Source: Kiritimatiellia bacterium
GTDB taxonomy: Bacteria; Verrucomicrobiota; Kiritimatiellia; RFP12; UBA3636
Direction: 5' to 3'
Assembly: GCA_017481725.1 (NCBI GenBank)
Contig: JAFUOX010000096.1
Coordinates: 1-40,320, forward strand
DNA length: 40,320 nt
Both the position numbers and the translations under genes were made by a program. The stretch's first letter is position 1. Each line of letters starts with the position of its first letter. Below the pieces are notes generated by a model. That model was given only the letters and a program-made list of their open reading frames with translations, made no database searches and had not been told where the DNA came from. This document shows, piece by piece, positions 177 through 25,190 of this stretch.

Positions 177-941
177 ATGAAATATTGGTTAACAATAATG
201 ATCGTTTTGCAAATTTTTGGACTGCATGCAGAGACATTTAAGATGGGTTTTCGTCCACGGGAAGTTTGCGAATTAAAATTTGAAAAAGACATATTTAGTG
301 TCGAAGAAAGAGATTTAATAACAAAGGATATCCACCGAATGTTTTTTTTATTTAGGAAACGAAAAGATATAATAAAAAAAGATCTTTTTACAGGAGAATA
401 TTCTTTTGCAAAAGTACCACCAGAAGCATTCCCAAAGAATTTTACAAAATATTTTGATTTTGAAGAAGGAAAAACGAATTTTGTTTTTATATTAAATTCA
501 AAGGGTTGTGATGCGTATAAAAAAGCTTTTGATTTTCGCTATAAGCACAAGGAAGAGATAAAAAAGCTAGAAGAATTTAATAGGGCGTTGCACAATAATG
601 AATTAGTAAAACTACCAAGAAAAGAAAAAGAGAAGCTATTGTTTGGAGAAACAAATGGAATTAATGATTTTCTTCTTGATAATAGTTTGCATCATGAATA
701 TTTTGATTATTATATTCAGCCACCATTGTGTATGCTTGATACTAGATATGTTACTTTCCCTGATGGAAATACATATTTAACTTGGTTTCATGGATCAGTA
801 AGTAATGAATGGGGTGAGTTTGAAATGGGACTTAATGCACACATTTATAAAGATGGAAGATGGACATTGCTGTATGGGAGACAAATTAGAGAGTTTTTAT
901 TAAATGAATATAAACAGTGGGTTCTAAGTGGCGAGGAATAG
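177..941 (+). CDS. Small secreted protein, array paralog 1 (254 aa)
   Basis: I do not recognise the family. Residues 1-18 form a Sec-type signal peptide (short charged start, hydrophobic stretch, LHA before ETF). The mature part is rich in Lys, Glu and Phe. Near the C-terminus the motif IYKDGRW corresponds to IYxxxKW in the other four array genes, so this is a distant member of the same family. The gene is AT-rich, follows a tail-domain remnant by about ten bases, and ends in TAG. One idea is a periplasmic immunity-like protein paired with the adjacent tail; the sequence does not prove this. Confidence 0.75.
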   Translation: MKYWLTIMIVLQIFGLHAETFKMGFRPREVCELKFEKDIFSVEERDLITKDIHRMFFLFRKRKDIIKKDLFTGEYSFAKVPPEAFPKNFTKYFDFEEGKTNFVFILNSKGCDAYKKAFDFRYKHKEEIKKLEEFNRALHNNELVKLPRKEKEKLLFGETNGINDFLLDNSLHHEYFDYYIQPPLCMLDTRYVTFPDGNTYLTWFHGSVSNEWGEFEMGLNAHIYKDGRWTLLYGRQIREFLLNEYKQWVLSGEE

Positions 942-1031
942 TCTCATTCTGATTTAATCCTCCACAATCAATATCATTATTTAAACCGTTTTAGTTCGAT
1001 AATTAAGATATAATCAAAATAAGGAGATAAA

Positions 1032-1727
1032 ATGAAAATCAAGCTAATTATACTAAATGTTATTTTGGGTGCTTTTGCTCTATGTGATACTGTGAAAATT
1101 GGAGCAGCATCTTATGAATTAACTTATTCTACGGATAACCTTACAAATTTAGAAAAAGCATCTGTAACAAATGATTTGAATAATATTTTTTCGCTCTTTG
1201 AAAATATAGAGGAATGTGTTACTCAATATGGTGAAACGTATTATTTAATGAGTGAAGATTATGAGACAGGACTACCAGAAGACTTTCATGAGTATGTTGC
1301 CGTAAAGAAAGTTGATAATACATTTTCTTTTGAAATTACATCCGAAGGTGCAGAAAAGTATAAGTCCGCTATTCAATTTGTTACTACAAATCAAACAAAA
1401 ATTAATGATTTAAATCTCTTGCTTTCAAATATTCAATCAAAGGCAATATTAAATTGGCCAGCAACAAATAAGCTCGCTCTAATTCATAATGCTCAAAAGA
1501 CAAATCTTAATGAAAGTAATGCAGATATTTTTGCAAATATGCTATGCAATGCATCTCCAAAAATGTCTAGCATCCTTGAAATTCAAATGTCTAATGTTTT
1601 AAGAGGGACAAATGTGCTAATGGCTGTGCCTAAAGCTAGAATTTCACACATGGGGAATCCTACAATAGCTTCCTATCCTATGATTTACATAGATGGTAAA
1701 TGGAAGATATTTTTATCGCCATTTTAA
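1032..1727 (+). CDS. Small secreted protein, array paralog 2 (231 aa)
   Basis: Family unknown. The N-terminus (MKIKLIILNVILGAFALCDT) is a signal peptide; a Cys at residue 18 after FAL could make it a lipoprotein, though the box is not ideal. The C-terminus carries PMIYIDGKWKI, the family signature. AAGGAG lies about seven bases before the ATG. In contrast to other array genes, no tail-domain remnant is visible in the 90 bases before it, while a long remnant begins about ten bases after its stop. The function is not inferable beyond an exported, probably periplasmic or surface protein. Confidence 0.75.
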   Translation: MKIKLIILNVILGAFALCDTVKIGAASYELTYSTDNLTNLEKASVTNDLNNIFSLFENIEECVTQYGETYYLMSEDYETGLPEDFHEYVAVKKVDNTFSFEITSEGAEKYKSAIQFVTTNQTKINDLNLLLSNIQSKAILNWPATNKLALIHNAQKTNLNESNADIFANMLCNASPKMSSILEIQMSNVLRGTNVLMAVPKARISHMGNPTIASYPMIYIDGKWKIFLSPF

Positions 1728-1736
1728 TAATTCTAA

Positions 1737-2120
1737 ATTTGGTATGCTTCATTCTCTGATTTTTGGGGCGATGCAAGTGAAGTAGGTAATAGTTATTTAC
1801 ATCATAATGCTTCGTTTTCAGCTAGATCAGTAACCATAGCAGGTGGTCATGGGAACCAAGCTTGTTATGATAATAATGGGAAAATAATTACAAGTACAAT
1901 AGCAGGAGGAACTGCCGATTTTGGAGCCGGTAATTGGAAGTTTTTTTTAACACATATAGATGAAGATGTAAACCCTTTTATAGATGCTTTACAATTAGAT
2001 GGTAATCCAGGGGAAATAGATTGGGTTAACGAAATACAACGACCATGTATATACCAAGGAGATTACTTAAACAAATATTTAGAACGAAGGCCAATAATTC
2101 AACCAGAAAAGGAAGAATAA
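1737..2120 (+). pseudogene. C-terminal remnant 2 of the repeated tail domain (127 codons, no start)
   Basis: The frame is open from an upstream TAA at 1734 to TAA at 2118-2120 and has no plausible start codon or ribosome site. It is the longest copy of the tail. Visible motifs in order are SFSDFWGDASE, GGHGNQACYD, IAGGTADFG, PFIDALQLDGNP, RPCIYQG and KYLERRPIIQP. HGNQACY, AGGTAD and DGNP recur in the 2857-3159 copy. The activity is unknown. The form (start-less C-terminal piece followed at once by a secreted-protein gene) fits an orphan toxin tip with its partner gene, which is inference. The stop lies one base before the next ATG. Confidence 0.6.
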
Positions 2121-2121
2121 A

Positions 2122-2844
2122 ATGAAATTACATTTTATTATTATGTTACTTACTTGTATCTCATCTGCTTTTGCATTTGATATAAATGGGACAAATGTCA
2201 TATTTCGTTTTGAAAATCAAAGTTTAGATTCAGCAACAAAAAATATGATCGAAACGGATTTATTACGCCGTATCGCACCAACATTACAGAGAGCATCTAT
2301 TGGTTTATCAATTATAGAAGGGAATGAAAATTATGAGTTAGAGGGTGTTTTATTTTGTTCTCCAACTCCTTTAAGTCTAGCTCATACGCTAGATACGACG
2401 TTAACAAAAGAATCTTCAAATTTTCTTTTGCGAGTAGACGATGAAGTAGTTTCTCAATATATTTCTAAAATTCAACTATATAGTGTAAACACAAATGCAA
2501 TTAAACAGGCATGGGATTTCGCAGATTACCTTAATAATTCAGACATACAAAATATGTCAACCAATGAATTAAGAAATTTAAGGATGGTTAAGGGATATGA
2601 GCCAGATGATTTTTCACCCGAAGACCTTCTTGACTTTAGGAAAGATTTGCAAGGTTGGAACTTTTATCATCCGTCAATAGCAGAATTTCAAATGATAAAA
2701 TGCGGGCCCAATAATGGTACATATTTATGGGGTATTCTTCCTTGCAAAAAAGATGAAATAATAGATTGCTTCCCAATTATATACATAAATGGTAAATGGA
2801 TGATTAGCTTCTGGATGTATGAGGAGTCGTTGTTAGGAATGTAA
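2122..2844 (+). CDS. Small secreted protein, array paralog 3 (240 aa)
   Basis: Residues 1-18 form a signal peptide (MKLHFIIMLLTCISSAFA). The mature protein begins FDINGTNVIFRFENQSL, resembling the LNIGTTNIVFTYEDTSL start of the two following genes. The C-terminal signature is GPNNGTYLWG ... IYINGKWMISFW. The ribosome site AAGGAAG lies in the last codons of the preceding tail remnant, so tail and gene are physically coupled. The protein is an unknown exported family member. AT-rich base use matches its array neighbours and differs clearly from the ribosomal operon. Confidence 0.78.
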   Translation: MKLHFIIMLLTCISSAFAFDINGTNVIFRFENQSLDSATKNMIETDLLRRIAPTLQRASIGLSIIEGNENYELEGVLFCSPTPLSLAHTLDTTLTKESSNFLLRVDDEVVSQYISKIQLYSVNTNAIKQAWDFADYLNNSDIQNMSTNELRNLRMVKGYEPDDFSPEDLLDFRKDLQGWNFYHPSIAEFQMIKCGPNNGTYLWGILPCKKDEIIDCFPIIYINGKWMISFWMYEESLLGM

Positions 2845-2856
2845 ATAGTTAAATAA

Positions 2857-3159
2857 AATAATAGGTACATATTTAAGTATAAAACCTCTGGAGATCATGG
2901 TAATCAAGCTTGCTATAACTCTGCTGGTGAAATTATAAAAAAAGGTATTGCTGGCGGTACAGCTGATTATGCTTATGCCGTTTGGTGGAACGTTTTTGAA
3001 CATGAAGAGAAAGATGTAGATCCATTTATATGGGCAATTTTAATTGATGGTAATCCTTGTAGTGTTAATATAATGAATGAAATTTCCAGACCTTGTCTTT
3101 ATCAAGGTTCTTTTTTAGAAAAATATATAGAATGTAGGCCTATAATTCAACCGGAGTAA
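2857..3159 (+). pseudogene. C-terminal remnant 3 of the repeated tail domain (100 codons, no start)
   Basis: The frame opens after TAA at 2854 and ends TAA at 3157-3159. It contains SGDHGNQACYN, IAGGTADYA, DVDPFIWAILIDGNP, RPCLYQG and the end RPIIQPE. It aligns with the copy at 1737-2120 over its whole length but has no start codon. The final codons CCG GAG also provide the Shine-Dalgarno-like CCGGAG for the gene at 3165, showing how tightly tail and downstream gene are joined. Confidence 0.6.
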
Positions 3160-3164
3160 ATTGT

Positions 3165-3854
3165 ATGAAAATAATTACATTATTAACTTGTATATTTGTG
3201 TTTAGTATAAATGCCGTTGCATTAAATATAGGCACAACAAATATCGTATTTACATACGAAGACACAAGCTTAACCATAGAGCAACAAGCGATTGTATCAA
3301 ATTGCGTTGATACATTATTAGAACCAGCACTTCCTTTTAGTTTCTTTTCCCATTTTAGAGAAAAGACATATTTGAAATTTATAGTACACGATTATCCGTT
3401 TAAATTAAGGATGTATGGAGCGGTTAATTTTAGTGAGAATACTATGACGCTTCCTATAACAAAAGAATTCTCTACTGAAATATTAAGTAAAATACGATTG
3501 CAAAGCGAATATTCTAATGCTATTAGTCAACTACCAGAATTTTGTGCAAGGTTAAAAACACAAAATGTATCACAGTTGTCTGATACTGAAGTTGATGGTT
3601 TTTTCTTGTTAACTGAAAGCCAAAAGAAAATTACGACAAGTTCTATGAATAGAATCTATTTAAATAATTTAAACGATCAGGTATTTTATGAAGTGCCAAT
3701 TGTTTGCTTTCGAAAGGAAAATGTAGGACCCAATAACGGCTCTTATTTATGGGCGTACGTTCCTAATAGTTGCGGGAGAATTACATTTCACCATCTTGAG
3801 TTAATCTACTATAACAACCGATGGTATATCTCGGATTGGCATCATGATTTTTAA
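3165..3854 (+). CDS. Small secreted protein, array paralog 4 (229 aa)
   Basis: The signal peptide is MKIITLLTCIFVFSINAVA. The mature start LNIGTTNIVFTYEDTSLT is almost identical to the next gene, also at DNA level over 93 bases. The C-terminal signature is GPNNGSYLWAYVP ... LIYYNNRWYISDW. The start is fixed by CCGGAG eight bases upstream. The protein has no recognised catalytic motif. Strong N-terminal and weaker central similarity to the 3919 gene suggests recent duplication or gene conversion. Confidence 0.78.
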   Translation: MKIITLLTCIFVFSINAVALNIGTTNIVFTYEDTSLTIEQQAIVSNCVDTLLEPALPFSFFSHFREKTYLKFIVHDYPFKLRMYGAVNFSENTMTLPITKEFSTEILSKIRLQSEYSNAISQLPEFCARLKTQNVSQLSDTEVDGFFLLTESQKKITTSSMNRIYLNNLNDQVFYEVPIVCFRKENVGPNNGSYLWAYVPNSCGRITFHHLELIYYNNRWYISDWHHDF

Positions 3855-3918
3855 TCAGGCTAAAAATTGATTTTCAAAATAGAAATCGTAAAATTTATAT
3901 TAAACCGGAGTGATAATT

Positions 3919-4605
3919 ATGAAAAAGAAATTATTGATAGCCATTGCATTTATTAGTGCCTTGAATGCTTACGCATTAAACATAGGCACAACGAATATCG
4001 TATTTACATACGAAGACACAAGCTTAACCCTAGAGCAACAAGCGATTGTATCAAATTGCGTTGATAAATTACTGACTCCTATATTGCCATTTGCTACTCT
4101 TGATGACTATGGCGACAATAATATTGCATTATATTTATCAAATCGTCCTCGGACATATAATTCGCCAATTTTTGGACTGGCAGCTTGCGAAAATAATGTT
4201 CTTTCATTGCCTATAGCAAAAGAGTTCACAACAGAATTATTTGCAAAGCAATCTCTTCAAACAACCTACACAAATGCTTTTAACACAATAGAAGCATTTT
4301 GTACAAAACTAAAAACACAAAATATTTCTCAGTTAACAGATGCGGAGGTAGATGAACAAATCTTACTTTCTGAATCACAAATGGAAGATTCTTCAATAGA
4401 AATTAAAAAGGCATTTTTAACAACTTTTGTTGGAGCAACATTTCATGATATTCCTTTGGCTTGTTATACTGCTATACAAAACGGTCCAAACAACACAGAA
4501 CACCTATGGGTTCAAGTCCCATTGTCAATTAGTGGCTCGTTTATGTATTTGCCAATGATATATCATAATAATAAGTGGCGAATCTCATTTTGGGGAATGT
4601 TTTAA
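3919..4605 (+). CDS. Small secreted protein, array paralog 5 (228 aa)
   Basis: I start it at ATG 3919, because CCGGAG at 3905-3910 is eight bases away; an in-frame GTG at 3910 overlaps that ribosome site and is unlikely. The signal peptide is MKKKLLIAIAFISALNAYA. The mature N-terminus repeats that of paralog 4. The C-terminal signature reads GPNNTEHLWVQVP ... MIYHNNKWRISFWG. The bases just upstream read in frame KIYIKPE then TGA, the last scrap of yet another tail-domain copy. Function unknown. Confidence 0.78.
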   Translation: MKKKLLIAIAFISALNAYALNIGTTNIVFTYEDTSLTLEQQAIVSNCVDKLLTPILPFATLDDYGDNNIALYLSNRPRTYNSPIFGLAACENNVLSLPIAKEFTTELFAKQSLQTTYTNAFNTIEAFCTKLKTQNISQLTDAEVDEQILLSESQMEDSSIEIKKAFLTTFVGATFHDIPLACYTAIQNGPNNTEHLWVQVPLSISGSFMYLPMIYHNNKWRISFWGMF

Positions 4606-19879: not shown

Positions 19880-20335
19880 ATGACACTATCACTTTCTAAT
19901 CTTTATACAACTCCTGGCTCAAACAAGAAGTCAAAGCGTCTTGGCCGTGGTGAGTCATCAGGTAAGGGTAAAACCTCTGGTAAGGGTAACAAGGGTCAGA
20001 TGGCTCGTAAGGGTCACAAGAGGAAGGTTAACTTCGAGGGTGGTCAGATGCCACTATTGCGTCGTCTTCCAAAACGTGGCTTCAAGAACCCAGCACGTGT
20101 TGCTTACACAGCAGTAAATCTTGATGTACTAAACACATTCTTCAAGGATGGCGATGTAGTTGATGCAGCAGCTCTTGTAGCTGCAGGTGCAGTTAAGAAG
20201 TTCGCTAATGGCGGCTTCAAGGTACTTTGCAAGGGTGATCTAGAGAAGAAGCTAACTGTTAAAGCAAATGCTTTCTCAGCAACAGCTAAGGCTAAGATCG
20301 AAGCTCTTGGTGGTACATGCGAAGTTATTGCTTAA
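19880..20335 (+). CDS. rplO: Ribosomal protein L15
   Basis: A 151-residue late-assembly 50S protein. LYTTPGSNKKSKRLGRGESSGKGKTSGKGNKGQ is the usual glycine/lysine-rich N-terminal arm, followed by FEGGQMPLLRRLPKRGF. I choose ATG 19880 rather than 19874: AAGGAG at 19867-19872 is seven bases from the first and only one from the second. It is the last gene of the operon; a terminator follows and secY does not. Confidence 0.95.
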   Translation: MTLSLSNLYTTPGSNKKSKRLGRGESSGKGKTSGKGNKGQMARKGHKRKVNFEGGQMPLLRRLPKRGFKNPARVAYTAVNLDVLNTFFKDGDVVDAAALVAAGAVKKFANGGFKVLCKGDLEKKLTVKANAFSATAKAKIEALGGTCEVIA

Positions 20336-20359
20336 TCTAAGTAACAACCGCATTACACA

Positions 20360-20391
20360 AAAGGCGTGGGCGAAAGCTCACGCCTTTTTTT
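20360..20391 (+). terminator. Rho-independent terminator of the ribosomal operon
   Basis: AGGCGTGGGC, a GAAA tetraloop and GCTCACGCCT form a ten-pair stem with one G-T pair, followed by seven T. It is 25 bases after rplO and ends the 12-kb operon. The left inverted repeat begins within its T tract. Confidence 0.92.
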
Positions 20392-20628
20392 GTGTCTAAT
20401 ACGTGAGAAGGAAGTATGGAGAAGCGACTTTCAGTCGCTTTATGCGCACGTGATGTGCGTGGGTGCGCTCTCGCGCAGTAAAACAGGATTACACGATTTG
20501 CAGGATGCTCAGGATTGTGTTGTTGTGTGCGCAGTGCACGACACTAGCGCTTGACGTTGGACATGGTCTTGCTCTCGTTGTCGCAAGGCCAACTTACAAG
20601 CGCTAGTGTGGTGGCAACCCATGTTCTT
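20389..20628 (+). repeat. 240-bp inverted repeat, left copy
   Basis: It runs from TGTGTCTAATACGTG to ACCCATGTTCTT and matches the reverse complement of 23990-24229 over 240 bases with few differences. Inside are a perfect hairpin AAGCGACT-TTC-AGTCGCTT, a GC-rich GCGCAC palindrome, the phrase CAGGATTACACGATTTGCAG, and nested arms ACACTAGCGCTTG (20542-20554) / CAAGCGCTAGTGT (20597-20609) that enclose GTTGG/CCAAC and CTTGC/GCAAG. A partial third copy of the first hairpin follows at 20634-20680. Confidence 0.9.
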
Positions 20629-20687
20629 CAAGTGCGTGAAAAGTATGGAGAAGCGACTTCCAGTCGCTTTATGCGCAGCACTCACAT

Positions 20688-20911
20688 AACTGGGGTGTAA
20701 GCCTTTTAGTCTTACACTTAACTGGGGTGCAAGCCTTTCAGTCTTGCACTTAACTGGGATGCAAGCCTTTTAGCCTTGCATTTAACTGGGGTGCAAGCCT
20801 TTCAGTCTTACACTTAACTGGGGTGTAAGCCTTTTAGTCTTACACTTAACTGGGATGCAAGCCTTTCAGCCTTGCATTTAACTGGGCGTGTAAGCCTTTC
20901 AGTCTTACACG
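20688..20911 (+). repeat. Seven tandem 32-bp hairpin repeats
   Basis: Units begin at 20688, 20720, 20752, 20784, 20816, 20848 and 20880, exactly 32 bases apart, each opening AACTGGG. Each carries a seven-base stem with a nine-base CCTTTyAGy loop: GTGTAAG/CTTACAC (units 1, 5, 7), GTGCAAG/CTTGCAC (2), ATGCAAG/CTTGCAT (3, 6). Unit 4 is a mixture (GTGCAAG with CTTACAC). The two arms change together, so base pairing appears to be kept. There are no spacers, so it is not a CRISPR. Confidence 0.92.
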
Positions 20912-21154
20912 CTCACAGATTCCCGCAAAGCGCCTGCTACTGCGCCCACCCTAATTTGTTGGCTGTTGTAAACCGCTTCTGATTAACAAATATTATAATG
21001 CACTTTCCCAACCACAAATTCTGATTGCAAAAGTTAAAAAACAAGAGTTGCTTTAATTTAAAATATAGAATATAATTTTTTAAAAATGTGGGATTTGTAT
21101 AAAAATAGAGCAAAAGTAGTTTTAAGCAACTACTGAAAATGAGGTACTTATCAT
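20912..21154. other. Gap before the island genes, with a small palindrome
   Basis: No gene is visible. The first half still looks like repeat debris; the second half is AT-rich. AGTAGTT (21115-21121) and AACTACT (21128-21134) form a seven-base palindrome with a six-base loop, 20 bases before the gene at 21155. It could be an operator or a leader hairpin. Confidence 0.45.
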
Positions 21155-21865
21155 ATGAAACAAAAAAATTATGTTATAGATGCGATGAGGAAAAATGGTG
21201 GATATGCTACGTTTCAACAATTAAATAGATTGGTAGATTTTTCTACTTGGGGAACCAAAACACCTTTTGCATCAATAAGAAGAATTGTACAAACAAATGA
21301 TGAATTTTTTAGGGTACAATCTGGATTATGGGCATTAAAAGAATGTGAGAAGGTTGTTTTAGAAAAATTTAAAATAGATACAAAGGATCAAGGCAGTATA
21401 AATGAATTTACTCATTCGTATTTTCAAGGAATTATTGTTGAAATAGGTAATTTAAGAAAATATGGTACTTATGTGCCTCCACAAGATAAAAATAAATTAT
21501 TTTTAGAAACGAAATTGTCAGAGTTAACCTCAACAGACAAGATTTATGATTTTACATATCCTGAAATTTTAAGGAAGGCAAAAACAGTAGACACAATTTG
21601 GTTTAATGAACGAAAAATGCCTTATGCTTTTTATGAGGTAGAACATTCAACAGATATTAAAAATTCATTAAATAAGTTCTATGAATTACAAGATTTTAGA
21701 GCAAAGTTTTATATTGTTGCTGCTAAGGAAAGAGAACATCAATTTGATGATATAATAAATGCTTCAATTTATGCACCAATAAAAGAGATTGTAAGTTTTG
21801 TTGATTATGATTCTTTGATTAAACTATATGATGTAGAAAATAAGGTATGCAAAAAGGTGATTTAA
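21155..21865 (+). CDS. Winged-helix protein with PD-(D/E)XK-like domain (236 aa)
   Basis: Residues 1-62 look like a winged-helix/HARE-type module (VIDAMRKNGGYATFQQL ... FFRVQSGLWAL). The C-terminal part has D146 in DTIWF, followed by AFYEVEHSTDIKNSLNKFYEL with E161-x-E163 and then FYIVAA, an arrangement seen in restriction-endonuclease-like folds. I infer a DNA-acting or sensing protein, perhaps of a defence or restriction type; no methylase is nearby. It is strongly AT-rich, unlike the ribosomal operon beside it, which suggests acquisition. The next gene overlaps by one base and is surely co-expressed. Confidence 0.65.
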   Translation: MKQKNYVIDAMRKNGGYATFQQLNRLVDFSTWGTKTPFASIRRIVQTNDEFFRVQSGLWALKECEKVVLEKFKIDTKDQGSINEFTHSYFQGIIVEIGNLRKYGTYVPPQDKNKLFLETKLSELTSTDKIYDFTYPEILRKAKTVDTIWFNERKMPYAFYEVEHSTDIKNSLNKFYELQDFRAKFYIVAAKEREHQFDDIINASIYAPIKEIVSFVDYDSLIKLYDVENKVCKKVI

Positions 21866-22065
21866 TGAAAAAATATACTATTGCAATACAAGAGACTATC
21901 GTTGATGAGTTTGAAATAGAAGCAAAAGATTTAAGAGAAGCTTTTGATATTGCTGCAAAAAAATATAATAAAGGTGAATTTGTTCTTTGCCCAGGAGAAG
22001 TGCATTCTAAACTGATGGCAGTAGTAAAACCAGACTGCGAATCAAAGGAATGGAATGAATTTTAA
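21865..22065 (+). CDS. DpnD/PcfM-like small protein (66 aa)
   Basis: MKKYTIAIQETIVDEFEIEAKDLREAFDIAAKKYNKGEFVL resembles the DpnD/PcfM family (Y-x-V-x-I-x-E-T ... V-x-A-x-x-x-x-E-A ... Y-x-x-G-E-x-V-L), named after a small protein of the Dpn restriction locus and a conjugative-plasmid protein; its biochemical role is unknown. I start it at ATG 21865, overlapping the upstream stop, because AAGGTG stands six bases away; an earlier in-frame ATG at 21847 lies inside the previous gene. Its pairing with a nuclease-like gene is suggestive of a restriction-related cassette. Confidence 0.6.
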   Translation: MKKYTIAIQETIVDEFEIEAKDLREAFDIAAKKYNKGEFVLCPGEVHSKLMAVVKPDCESKEWNEF

Positions 22066-22135
22066 TTCTTTTTGATTATGCTTTAAAGGTAGTATAAAAA
22101 TGAGGATAATAGATTTAAGTTAAAAGAGCTTATTA

Positions 22136-22387
22136 TCAAAGAACAACATATTCGTCCACCATTCGTTGTGCAATTTCCATATCGCCAGCTTGCACTGCTG
22201 CCATATAGGCTGCGTCAGCAATGACGGAAGCACGTGATTTTTTTTTCAATTGACTATTTTCAACCGCTTTTGATATCATACCAATGAACTCGGTAATCGG
22301 GGTTTGTCTCTCGCTTTCTGCGATGGCAACCAACTGCCCTACCGAGTTTTTATATTTAGCAACATCAATTGCTTCTATAGAATACAA
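22136..22387 (-). CDS. Small hypothetical protein, TTG start (83 aa)
   Basis: Reads (M)YSIEAIDVAKYKNSVGQL to MVDEYVVL with TGA as stop, followed directly by TAA. A GGAG five bases before TTG supports the start. The frame is open for some 26 codons further upstream (FTILEYVKDGVRL...) but without another start, so it may be the 3' half of an older gene. It is mostly helical, alanine-rich and less AT-rich than its neighbours. I recognise no family. It is convergent with the DpnD-like gene. Confidence 0.4.
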   Translation of the reverse strand: MYSIEAIDVAKYKNSVGQLVAIAESERQTPITEFIGMISKAVENSQLKKKSRASVIADAAYMAAVQAGDMEIAQRMVDEYVVL

Positions 22388-22690
22388 TCTTACTCCATCC
22401 TTAACATATTCTAAAATTGTAAAGCAACGGGTTATTGGAAAACAAATAGTGTTAAGTATAATTTTCTATTGATAGCACATGAGTACCTATTTATTTTCAA
22501 AAAGGCATAGGATAATCTTCTTATATATTATTCTATTGTTTTTTACTGTATAATCCTGTCGAAAGCATTCCCATAATTGTGGTAGGGTAGCCATCGAAAG
22601 GTATGTTGCACTCTCTTATTCACTATGACATAGTGCTTAACCGGTATTCGCCCATCCTCTTCTTGCGCGAGAGCGCACTCGCGCGCCCCG

Positions 22691-22717
22691 CGCGCCAAGC
22701 TCCTCGCACTTTTAGCC
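22691..22717 (+). repeat. 27-bp direct repeat, copy 1
   Basis: Begins CGCGCCAAGCTCCTCGCAC. Two substitutions separate it from copy 2 at 23956-23982. Each copy stands next to sequence related to the 240-bp repeat. Confidence 0.8.
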
Positions 22718-22810
22718 ATCATCCTAGCCATCACGCTTGTGGTTGTGGCAATTGAACCAATTGGGTAAAAAACGCTCTGCGTCCGCAATGTTTGGGCTGT
22801 AGATTTTTGT

Positions 22811-22839
22811 TTGTCTTTATTTTTTTCCCGTGTTATAAT
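22811..22839 (+). promoter_or_regulatory. Candidate promoter of the ORF6N gene
   Basis: TTGTCT (22811-22816), a 17-base spacer and a perfect TATAAT (22834-22839). It lies 71 bases before the ATG at 22911. Confidence 0.6.
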
Positions 22840-22910
22840 AAGGTTGTTAAATACAAAAGTTTATTGTTTGAATTGGTAATAAAGAACTGAATATAACCCT
22901 GGAGGATTGC

Positions 22911-23846
22911 ATGAATAATTCTAAAGAAATAATAAACGTACAAGTTGAAGCGTCTATTAAAGAAAGTATTTTCTCTATAAGAGGTCAACAAGTAATAGCA
23001 GATAGGGATATCGCTAAATTATATGGTGTTACAACAAGTGCATTAAATCAAGCCGTTAAGCGTAATCATAAACGATTTCCAGAGCGATTTATGTTTCAGC
23101 TTACAGATGAAGAATTTCATAAATGGAAATCACAAATTGTGATATCCAAAATGTCTGACTCTTCGTTCCGCATGGGGTTGCGAACAAAACCATATGTATT
23201 TACAGAGCATGGTGTAACAATGTTAGCGGCTGTATTAAAAAGTCAAACTGCTATAAATATTTCTCTATCAATAATAGATGCCTTTGTCGCTATGCGTAGA
23301 TTTATATCTATGAACGAAGATGTGTTTAAAAGAGTGCAGATGCTTGAATTACGTCAGAATTTAGATCAAGAACACAATGAAGCTCAATTTAAAAAGGTTT
23401 TTGCGGCATTAGAAGAAAAGAAGAGTAGTGTTCAAGGTGTATTTTTTGATGGACAACTATGGGATGCTCGAATGTTGATTGATGAAATAATACAAACAGC
23501 AAAGCAATCAATAATACTGATAGATAATTGGGTCTCGGTTTCCACTTTAAATATGTTTGCATCAAAAAATGAGAATGTATTTTTAAAAATTGTTACTACT
23601 TCTCATAGAGATAAAAATGGCAATCTTAAACAAAATATATCACAAGAAGATGCTTTAAAATTTAATGCTCAGTATCCAAAGTTAGAAATTATTTTTAATA
23701 ATACCTTCCACGATAGATTTCTGATAATCGACGATCGAGATTTGTATCTTATTGGTGCTTCTCTAAAAGACTTGGGTAAAAAATGTTTTGGATTCACGCA
23801 ATTAGATTCTTGTTTTATTTCAGATATAAAAAAGCGCATATATTGA
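22911..23846 (+). CDS. ORF6N-domain protein with PLD-like C-terminus (311 aa)
   Basis: Residues about 14-105 match the ORF6N domain (IRGQQVIADRDIAKLYGV, RNHKRFPERFMFQLT, KPYVFTEHGVTMLAAVL), a DNA-binding-type module of phage and mobile elements related to KilA-N. A coiled linker follows (about 140-170). The C-terminal part (WDARMLIDEIIQTAKQSIILID ... FHDRFLIID at 266-274 ... LIGASLKDLG) resembles a phospholipase-D-like domain with H267. Such fusions recur in mobile regions and may be antiviral or regulatory; the role is unproved. GGAGG stands six bases before the ATG. It ends in TGA, and the following codons run into repeat DNA. Confidence 0.8.
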   Translation: MNNSKEIINVQVEASIKESIFSIRGQQVIADRDIAKLYGVTTSALNQAVKRNHKRFPERFMFQLTDEEFHKWKSQIVISKMSDSSFRMGLRTKPYVFTEHGVTMLAAVLKSQTAINISLSIIDAFVAMRRFISMNEDVFKRVQMLELRQNLDQEHNEAQFKKVFAALEEKKSSVQGVFFDGQLWDARMLIDEIIQTAKQSIILIDNWVSVSTLNMFASKNENVFLKIVTTSHRDKNGNLKQNISQEDALKFNAQYPKLEIIFNNTFHDRFLIIDDRDLYLIGASLKDLGKKCFGFTQLDSCFISDIKKRIY

Positions 23847-23955
23847 TATAAATGTGCAAACAGCTGCCAAATTAAAAAAATAAGAAAGAGCTTCTTAAAT
23901 TGACATTGTTGCAGCGCTTGCTCTGCGCGAATTAATTTGCTCTCCCACATCCCCA

Positions 23956-23982
23956 CGCGCCAATCTCCTCGCATTTTTAGCC
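23956..23982 (+). repeat. 27-bp direct repeat, copy 2
   Basis: Second copy of the phrase at 22691-22717, located seven bases before the right 240-bp inverted repeat. Confidence 0.8.
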
Positions 23983-23989
23983 AACACAC

Positions 23990-24229
23990 AAGAAACATGG
24001 GTGCCCCCACACTAGCGCTTGTAAGTTGGCCTTGCGCCAACGAGAGCAAGACCATGTCCAACGTCAAGCGCTAGTGTCGTGCACTGCGCACACAACAACT
24101 CAATCCTGAGCATCCCGCAAATCCTGTAATCCTGTTTTCCTGCGCGAGAGCGCACTCGCGCACATCACGTGCGCAAAAAGCGACTGAAAGTCGCTTCTCC
24201 ATACTTCCTTCACACGTATTAGACACAAA
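23990..24229 (-). repeat. 240-bp inverted repeat, right copy
   Basis: It is the reverse complement of 20389-20628 with the same internal hairpins and both ACACTAGCGCTTG arms. Together the copies enclose about 3.4 kb of accessory genes. No transposase is between them. Confidence 0.9.
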
Positions 24230-24545
24230 CCATAAATTCCACACTTGACCAAATGTGCTTCTCCTAAGCCTATGCACATTGTAAATTTTCGATATTAATC
24301 TCTCTTAATGCTTTCGGCAATACTGTTTTTTCAATAATCCCTTGAATAATTTTTTAGTAGAAATGAGGCTCGCTTATAACCGTGAATCTCACATAAGATT
24401 TTAGAAAAAACTTCTATGCCCTAAACTCTACTATCTGTTACGTGTTATTGCATTTTAATATCTGTTATGGTAAAATTTACACGTTTTTATTTTTAACACA
24501 TCTGTGTGTGGTTTTATACAAAGGTTTTAATAAATTATTCCTATT
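24230..24545. other. Gap between the island and the mcsA-like gene
   Basis: No complete gene. On the minus strand 24270-24353 reads 27 codons resembling a protein end (IIEKTVLPKALREINIENL then TAG), cut off by an in-frame stop before any start; it may be a gene scrap. A promoter candidate lies at 24448-24476. Confidence 0.4.
24448..24476 (+). promoter_or_regulatory. Candidate promoter of the mcsA-mcsB pair
   Basis: TTGCAT (24448-24453), a 17-base spacer and TAAAAT (24471-24476), 69 bases before the ATG. The -35 match is weak. Confidence 0.4.
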
Positions 24546-25190
24546 ATGAAATGTGAAATCTGTCATATAAATGATGCCCAACAACCCATTGAAAAAATAG
24601 AAAATGGCGTTGCTAAGGAGTATTATGTTTGCAAATCTTGTGCAAGCCAACTAAAGATTGGTCAAATTGGCAAATATTCTATGGCTGATGTTCTCTTTGA
24701 TTTTTCTTCAACAAAACAAAATGAAGAAATCGATCCCCCAATAATAGAGATGAATTGTCCAACCTGTGGATCTAGTTTTGCCAAAATTCATGAGAGCCAC
24801 CGTGCCGGATGCCCAGATTGCTATCAAATATTTAAAAAGCAATTGGGGTATATGGTTGCTGTATATAATTCCTCAGATGTTTATTCGGTTAAAAATGAAG
24901 TGCTAGAACTTGAGAAAAAACTCTCTGCTGCAATTTCTGATGAACGCTATGAGGATGCTGCTGTAATTCGTGATCTCATTAAATCAAAAACAGAAGCTAA
25001 AACTCTAAAACCTTCTGCCAATAATAAGCCACAAATGCCTGAAGAACTTCTCGAGGCAATGAAAAAAATGGGAATCGATGTTGATATTATCAATAAGCAA
25101 CAGAATGATGACGATCCTTCTGATGATGGCAATGATGATTCAAGCATTGATTTTGATGGTGATGATGATAGTGATGATGACCCATTTTGA
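24546..25190 (+). CDS. mcsA: McsA-like zinc-finger protein with UvrB/UvrC motif
   Basis: 214 residues. Two zinc-binding pairs stand at the N-terminus: CEIC (3-6) with CKSC (29-32), and CPTC with CPDC near 75-97. A UvrB/UvrC motif follows (VLELEKKLSAAISDERYEDAAVIRDLI, about 119-145). The tail is very acidic (DDDPSDDGNDDSS). In Firmicutes and chlamydiae McsA activates the protein-arginine kinase McsB, and the next gene here is an McsB homologue. The stop is TGA; the next in-frame stop is seven codons on (YFKTVV then TAA). No ctsR or clpC is beside it. Confidence 0.85.
   Translation: MKCEICHINDAQQPIEKIENGVAKEYYVCKSCASQLKIGQIGKYSMADVLFDFSSTKQNEEIDPPIIEMNCPTCGSSFAKIHESHRAGCPDCYQIFKKQLGYMVAVYNSSDVYSVKNEVLELEKKLSAAISDERYEDAAVIRDLIKSKTEAKTLKPSANNKPQMPEELLEAMKKMGIDVDIINKQQNDDDPSDDGNDDSSIDFDGDDDSDDDPF

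What the first reader, a model, noticed from the sequence alone, without database searches (positions are those of the whole stretch)
20688..20911. Seven tandem 32-bp hairpin units with compensatory stem changes
Seen: exact 32-base periodicity, invariant AACTGGG opening and pyrimidine-variable loop, and stems that vary in pairs (GTGTAAG/CTTACAC, GTGCAAG/CTTGCAC, ATGCAAG/CTTGCAT). The joint change implies selection or a copying mechanism that keeps pairing, as in structured RNA or protein-bound palindromes. There are no spacers. It lies beside a 240-bp structured repeat at the edge of an accessory island.
Basis: seen in the sequence. Interest (0 to 1): 0.7.

Follow-up and report, generated by a model that had tools for sequence, protein, structure and literature searches.

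The report
Tandem array of REP-type DNA hairpins
Seven head-to-tail copies of a 32-base hairpin downstream of a ribosomal-protein operon in an uncultured Kiritimatiellae bacterium are a local expansion of a dispersed, transposase-linked palindromic repeat family (REP type), not a new structured RNA; a sister species has a single copy at the same place.

Summary
The array is real: seven units at 20687-20911, period exactly 32, each TAACTGGG plus a 7-bp stem (8 bp in the last), with two covarying stem pairs and one unit carrying a C.A mismatch. It is not an isolated structure. The sister genome G001 (Kiritimatiellae MAG RGIG990, cattle rectum) has one unit at the orthologous site. A covariance model finds 11 tag+hairpin units in the own genome, 210 in G001, 18 in G002 and none in 56 other related genomes. 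Nearly all G001 units examined are extragenic, on both strands; stem sequences differ between types while pairing is kept. In another genus of the order, TAACTGGG/TGACTGGG hairpins (about 45 copies per genome in three species) bracket and overlap a REP-associated tyrosine transposase (RAYT) gene. The own genome also has a full RAYT unit for the neighbouring repeat (window 20412, 20641, 24170). Best reading: an atypically tagged (not GTAG/CGTC) REP family, locally amplified from 1 to 7, stems kept paired by selection for hairpin formation and/or hairpin-templated correction. No cognate RAYT beside AACTGGG units was found in this genus. A structured-RNA role is unlikely but untested.

The parts
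20359..20388 (+). Intrinsic terminator after rplO, upstream of the array
   Evidence: 13-bp stem followed by a T run; G002 also has a terminator-like hairpin after rplO
20389..20628 (+). 240-bp mosaic repeat, left copy; parts of it are dispersed in the genome
   Evidence: Inverted partner at 23990-24229, 94%; many partial copies in own genome, e.g. the segment 20541-20610 about 30 times
20412..20448 (+). Copy of the second REP family (GGAGAAGCGACTTTCAGTCGCTT hairpin)
   Evidence: About 40 copies in own genome; same hairpins flank a RAYT gene at G000:C18
20641..20677 (+). Second copy of that REP family, directly before the array
   Evidence: 97% identical to 20412-20448
20681..20686 (+). CTCACA, left direct repeat flanking the array (role unknown)
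   Evidence: Sequence; CCCACA in G001
20687..20718 (+). Unit 1: TAACTGGG + GTGTAAG/CTTACAC
20719..20750 (+). Unit 2: TAACTGGG + GTGCAAG/CTTGCAC
20751..20782 (+). Unit 3: TAACTGGG + ATGCAAG/CTTGCAT
20783..20814 (+). Unit 4: TAACTGGG + GTGCAAG/CTTACAC, C.A mismatch; identical to the single unit of G001
20815..20846 (+). Unit 5: identical to unit 1
20847..20878 (+). Unit 6: TAACTGGG + ATGCAAG/CTTGCAT, loop differs from unit 3
20879..20911 (+). Unit 7: TAACTGGG + CGTGTAAG/CTTACACG (inserted C, 8-bp stem)
20912..20917 (+). CTCACA, right direct repeat flanking the array
   Evidence: Sequence; CCCACA in G001
24170..24206 (-). Third window copy of the second REP family, in the right-hand inverted repeat
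23990..24229 (-). 240-bp mosaic repeat, right (inverted) copy

Best explanation
The array is a cluster of REP-type elements (repetitive extragenic palindromes): short DNA units made of a conserved 5' tag (TAACTGGG) and a hairpin whose sequence may drift as long as it pairs. They behave as non-autonomous mobile repeats of the kind handled as single-stranded hairpins by HuH/Y1 transposases (RAYT, TnpA_REP). SHOWN: tag + hairpin units are dispersed, extragenic and numerous in a sister species; a single unit sits at the orthologous site in that species; in another genus of the order the same tag with a different hairpin brackets and overlaps a RAYT gene. INFERRED: in this lineage the single unit behind rplO expanded to seven by tandem duplication (slippage, unequal crossing over, or repeated strand transfer); stems stay paired because unpaired copies are not recognised and/or because imperfect stems are rewritten by template switching inside the hairpin (quasipalindrome correction).
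For: (1) Copy number 1 versus 7 at the same place: G001 C129 matches the window over 817 bp at 94%, from rplO through the 240-bp repeat and neighbouring REP into the first unit, and carries one unit; G002 has rplO but lacks the whole block. (2) Dispersed family: model R1 finds 11, 210 and 18 units in G000, G001, G002 and none in 56 other relatives; tandem TAACTGGG pairs 65 forward and 64 reverse in G001 with zero control hits. (3) 4 of 184 G001 units lie in ORFs of 150 aa or more although such ORFs cover 82% of the sequence. (4) Pairing conserved while sequence changes: 7 of 10 pairs change on both sides, 91.8% of cells paired versus 28.6-43.2% when slid; this alignment was assembled by hand from distinct unit types. 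(5) RAYT link: G051 Y1_Tnp gene (NCBIfam REP_Tyr_transpos E=3e-18, below that model's curated cut-off) has TAACTGGG hairpins at its 3' end (C41:28113, 28146) and TGACTGGG hairpins at its 5' end (28787, 28826) in inverted orientation; 43-45 copies genome-wide in G051, G059, G069. (6) The own genome has the same arrangement for the neighbouring REP: RAYT at C18 with REP pairs on both sides and REP sequence inside the ORF. (7) Template-switch footprints: u7 differs from the G001 unit by an inserted C and C>T, both complementary to the opposite arm; one G001 copy has a private G-C to T-A change on both arms where about 0.02 double changes are expected.
Against: No RAYT gene flanked by AACTGGG units was found in G000, G001 or G002; their long Y1 proteins with a C-terminal extension have no such hairpins beside them, and all three MAGs are incomplete. 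The tag is not the canonical GTAG or CGTC. Neither the amplification mechanism nor transposition is demonstrated. The polarity of the stem changes rests on one orthologous copy, and A/B-type family members carry T-A at pair 4, so unit 4 may be a derived mismatch rather than the ancestor.
Confidence: 0.72

Rival explanations
1. Structured RNA: the array is transcribed and works as a multi-hairpin RNA (regulatory, or mRNA stabilising).
For: Covariation of stems; RNA folds of single units are stable.
Against: No Rfam match; strong terminator upstream and the only promoter-like match in the region is at chance level; copy number 1 versus 7 in sister species and dispersed relatives on both strands.
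Confidence: 0.07
2. Protein-bound palindrome cluster: a chromosomal array bound by a nucleoid, replication or regulatory protein (iteron-like, or gyrase/IHF binding as described for E. coli BIMEs).
For: Conserved tag and regular spacing; REP clusters in enterobacteria are known binding sites for host proteins (general knowledge; mentioned in the abstract of PMC2817692).
Against: Stem sequence drifts freely between units and species, unlike sequence-specific operators; 210 dispersed copies in G001. It could be a secondary role of REPs and is not exclusive.
Confidence: 0.08
3. Plain minisatellite: tandem duplication of an arbitrary short sequence by slippage, with pairing accidental.
For: Exact period and near-identical units; 96-bp higher-order period at 93% suggests segmental duplication.
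Against: The unit belongs to a dispersed tag+hairpin family with strong pairing conservation and a RAYT association in relatives. Slippage probably did multiply the unit, but does not explain the unit.
Confidence: 0.08
4. Assembly artefact of a metagenome-assembled genome (wrong copy number or chimeric repeat).
For: Draft MAG, 104 contigs; repeats are error-prone in short-read assembly.
Against: Six distinct unit versions in a definite order inside a 40-kb contig; flanks orthologous to G001 on both sides. The exact number seven is less certain than the existence of the array.
Confidence: 0.05

Closest known systems
REP / REPIN elements with RAYT (TnpA_REP) transposases (Nunvar 2010 PMC2817692; Bertels and Rainey 2011 PMC3116915)
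   Same: Short tag 5' of a hairpin, extragenic, dispersed on both strands; compensatory changes and regular tandem arrays of REPs are reported for P. fluorescens SBW25 (PMC3116915); RAYT flanked by its REPs in G051 and, for the neighbouring family, in the own genome.
   Different: The tag is TAACTGGG, not GTAG; units lie head to tail without spacers rather than as inverted doublets; no cognate RAYT found in this genus.
GTAG- and CGTC-tagged palindrome superfamilies (Di Nocera 2013, PMC3733652)
   Same: Tagged 20-40 bp palindromes, also reported in the PVC superphylum (Opitutus terrae has many); head-tail dimers and tandem reiteration are described.
   Different: The defining tetranucleotide is not at the foot of the stem.
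TnpA_Y1 subclass 2.4 REPtrons (Quentin 2018, PMC6006769)
   Same: REP sequence inserted inside the tnpA_REP gene without breaking the frame, HuH motif NHVH, Y motif YIRNNP and WQ in the own-genome C18 protein.
   Different: Subclass 2.4 is described with GT[AG]G REPs; atypical REPs are described for subclasses 2.6 and 3. No subclass HMM or tree was run here.
Quasipalindrome / template-switch correction of hairpins (Monttinen and Loytynoja 2022, PMC8794818)
   Same: Mismatched stem corrected towards either arm; insertion that lengthens the palindrome; multi-base compensatory change in one step.
   Different: Those authors studied RNA genes; here the pattern is seen in a DNA repeat array, with one orthologous copy as the only polarity.

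Membership tests
REP elements (general sense) | 20-40 nt palindromic unit able to form a hairpin | tested here: met
REP elements (general sense) | Dispersed, many copies per genome | tested here: met
   210 in G001, 18 in G002, but only 11 in the own genome of which 7 form the array
REP elements (general sense) | Predominantly extragenic, both strands | tested here: met
   4 of 184 units in long ORFs; 98 forward, 86 reverse (G001)
Canonical GTAG REP | GT[AG]G at the 5' foot of the stem | tested here: not met
   Foot is TGGG in all units
CGTC REP | CGTC tag at one end | tested here: not met
   No CGTC at either end of the unit; CGTC in G001 types lies inside the hairpin
REPtron (REP with cognate RAYT) | RAYT gene flanked by copies of the same REP | tested here: inconclusive
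   Met for TAACTGGG/TGACTGGG hairpins in G051; not found in G000, G001, G002, which are incomplete
REPtron (REP with cognate RAYT) | Transposase binds and cleaves the hairpin strand | not testable with these tools
   Needs biochemistry
Structured RNA family (Rfam) | Match to a curated family at gathering threshold | tested here: not met
   No match in the window
CRISPR array | Repeats separated by unique spacers | tested here: not met
   Units are contiguous, period 32, no spacers

The most novel reading that the evidence does not exclude
The array and its single-copy ortholog are a natural record of hairpin-templated (quasipalindrome) rewriting in a REP family: a mismatched stem (GTGCAAG/CTTACAC) is resolved towards the left arm in one unit, towards the right arm in others, and lengthened by a templated insertion in the last, so that compensatory changes arise by copying rather than by selection on an RNA. 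In this reading REP stems diversify within and between genomes by template switching, which would explain how tags stay fixed while hairpin sequences change.
Probability: 0.3. Interest if true: 0.5.

Novelty: new member of a known kind. Interest (0 to 1): 0.32.

Why it matters
It shows that covariation in a tandem hairpin array need not mean a structured RNA: REP-type mobile palindromes give the same signature. It adds a TGGG-tagged REP family in Kiritimatiellae, outside the GTAG and CGTC superfamilies, with a RAYT association in one genus and a clear one-to-seven expansion between sister species. If template switching is confirmed, such arrays would be convenient natural material for asking whether compensatory stem changes arise by copying or by selection.

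Tried and rejected
A first own-genome pattern with one base too many found only unit 7; corrected. Rfam: no match. tRNA: none. CRISPR: rejected, no spacers. Protein-coding repeat: forward frames are interrupted by stops within the array, and 32 is not a multiple of 3. Y1_Tnp genes of G000 C4 and C91, G001 C36 and G002 C39 as the cognate transposase: rejected for lack of AACTGGG hairpins beside them. Weak pattern hits in G062, G092, G043 (3 mismatches) and G087, G198, G203, G208 are not hairpin arrays and are taken as chance, at a level similar to the backward control. Literature search for REPs in Kiritimatiellae found no description, but only open-licence papers are held.

Full report
OBSERVATION. 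The array is present and exact. Tandem Repeats Finder reports 20683-20910 with period 32 and no indels; the seven units begin at 20687 and every 32 bases thereafter. Each is TAACTGGG followed by a 23-base hairpin with a 7-bp stem; the last has an extra C that makes an 8-bp stem. AACTGGG occurs seven times in phase and twice elsewhere on that strand; Markov-1 windows average two per strand. Inside the array only two pairs covary, a result reached by 7 of 500 shuffles, so the array alone would be modest evidence.

GENOMIC SETTING. The window is contig C71 of a 2.59-Mb draft genome (104 contigs, 88.3% complete). The array lies 350 bp after rplO, behind a strong intrinsic terminator at 20359-20388. 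Between terminator and array are a 240-bp repeat, whose inverted copy is at 23990-24229, and two copies of a hairpin repeat (GGAGAAGCGACTTYCAGTCGCTT; 20412 and 20641), which has about 40 matches in the genome. Parts of the 240-bp repeat are themselves dispersed. The segment between the inverted repeats holds an ORF without a family match (21155) and an ORF6N-domain protein (22911).

SISTER SPECIES. It is identical to unit 4. G002 (RGIG9845, yak rectum) has rplO and a terminator-like hairpin but no block. So the locus holds 0, 1 and 7 units in three species of one genus.

THE FAMILY. The same tag with other hairpins is dispersed in G001, usually as ordered A-B-C triplets inside mosaic elements of about 350 bp (A GTGTAGGACGTCCYCGTCCTACAC, B CTGTAAGACGTCCYCGTCTTACAG, C of two kinds). 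A covariance model built from 20 distinct units finds 11 units in G000, 210 in G001, 18 in G002 and none in 56 other relatives. Outside the array the own genome has degenerate members on C8 and C73. Of 184 G001 units, 4 lie in long ORFs although such ORFs cover 82% of the sequence; 98 are on one strand and 86 on the other. In the family alignment seven of ten pairs change on both sides, 31 cells against 11.9 in shuffles, and sliding one arm removes the signal. Caveat: I chose distinct unit types by hand, and the shuffles do not correct for relatedness. Some A units with a B 3' arm are chimeras, as expected from recombination between neighbouring units.

THE TRANSPOSASE LINK. In genus g8, another family of the order, the tag TAACTGGG or TGACTGGG carries a different hairpin (ANN GCCGCC NTCNN GGCGGC): 45, 44 and 43 matches in G051, G059 and G069, none in the backward control. 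In G051 a Y1 transposase gene (PF01797; NCBIfam REP-associated tyrosine transposase E=3e-18 but under that model's curated cut-off) has two such hairpins at its 3' end and two at its 5' end in inverted orientation; the 3' copies run into the reading frame. The own genome has a comparable unit for the neighbouring repeat: the RAYT at C18 is flanked on both sides by GGAGAAGCG hairpin pairs and carries one in its own N-terminal coding region. It is 44% identical to the G051 protein. Its NHVH, WQ and YIRNNP motifs fit subclass 2.4 of Quentin et al. (PMC6006769), which is also the subclass described with REP insertions in the transposase gene; I did not run a phylogeny. No RAYT flanked by AACTGGG hairpins was found in G000, G001 or G002.

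HOW IT MOST LIKELY WORKS. Shown: dispersed, extragenic, tag-plus-hairpin units; one-to-seven expansion at an orthologous site; RAYT bracketed by the same tag in a related genus. Inferred: the units are REPs, recognised as single-stranded hairpins by a Y1 transposase (as shown by others for E. coli, Stenotrophomonas and Marinomonas REPs, PMC8266576); local multiplication by slippage or unequal exchange (the 96-bp higher-order period at 93%, suggests that a multi-unit segment was duplicated). Stem pairing can be kept by selection for transposase recognition or by quasipalindrome correction. For the latter: unit 2 matches the mismatched unit with the right arm corrected; units 1 and 5 match it with the left arm corrected; unit 7 differs from it by an inserted C and a C-to-T change, both complementary to the right arm, which one template switch would explain; and one G001 B unit has a private G-C to T-A double change where about 0.02 would be expected from single-arm changes. 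This is suggestive only: polarity relies on one orthologous copy, and A/B relatives have T-A at the same pair.

RIVALS. A structured RNA is disfavoured by the terminator, the lack of an Rfam match, the copy-number difference and the dispersed relatives on both strands. A protein-binding cluster is possible as a secondary role. A plain minisatellite explains the tandem arrangement but not the dispersed paired family. Assembly error could change the count but not create the ordered variants with orthologous flanks.

NOVELTY. Tandem REP arrays and compensatory changes in REP doublets were described in P. fluorescens (PMC3116915), head-tail REP dimers and PVC REPs in PMC3733652, and atypically tagged REPs in PMC6006769. 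What is new here is the TGGG-tagged family in Kiritimatiellae and the 0/1/7 series. I therefore rate it a new member of a known kind, interest 0.32.

Noticed in passing
G000:C18:50350-51260 (L115): A full RAYT unit (REPtron) in the own genome: transposase gene flanked on both sides by GGAGAAGCGACTTYCAGTCGCTTTAAAGCGGCAGGATGCCGCTTCTCC inverted pairs, and a REP copy inside the N-terminal coding region.
   Followed up: yes
20681-20686 and 20912-20917; L034: The array is bracketed by CTCACA on both sides in the window and CCCACA on both sides of the single unit in G001: the same T/C difference in both copies, unexplained.
   Followed up: no
20412-20448 and 20687-20911: The array loop shares the 9-mer CTTTCAGTC with the neighbouring REP hairpin, possibly by exchange between adjacent hairpins.
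   Followed up: no
L036, L037, L040 and other G001 loci; L197 (G002): A third tag-plus-variable-hairpin family, ATGAAGC followed by differing short hairpins in tandem, lies in the same mosaic elements of G001 and after rplO in G002.
   Followed up: partly
G000:C4:29800, G000:C91:2050, G001:C36:3670, G002:C39:10010: Long Y1 transposase-like proteins (about 320-420 aa) with a shared C-terminal extension (STFTSPQER...) and no matching tag hairpins beside them; they may have another role.
   Followed up: partly
177-4605: A run of five similar small, apparently secreted proteins (several share LNIGTTNIVFTYEDTSL), probable tandem paralogues of unknown function.
   Followed up: no
20335-24546: secY does not follow rplO; the genus ends this ribosomal operon with a terminator after rplO, and the window then carries a segment bounded by 240-bp inverted repeats with an orphan ORF and an ORF6N protein.
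   Followed up: partly
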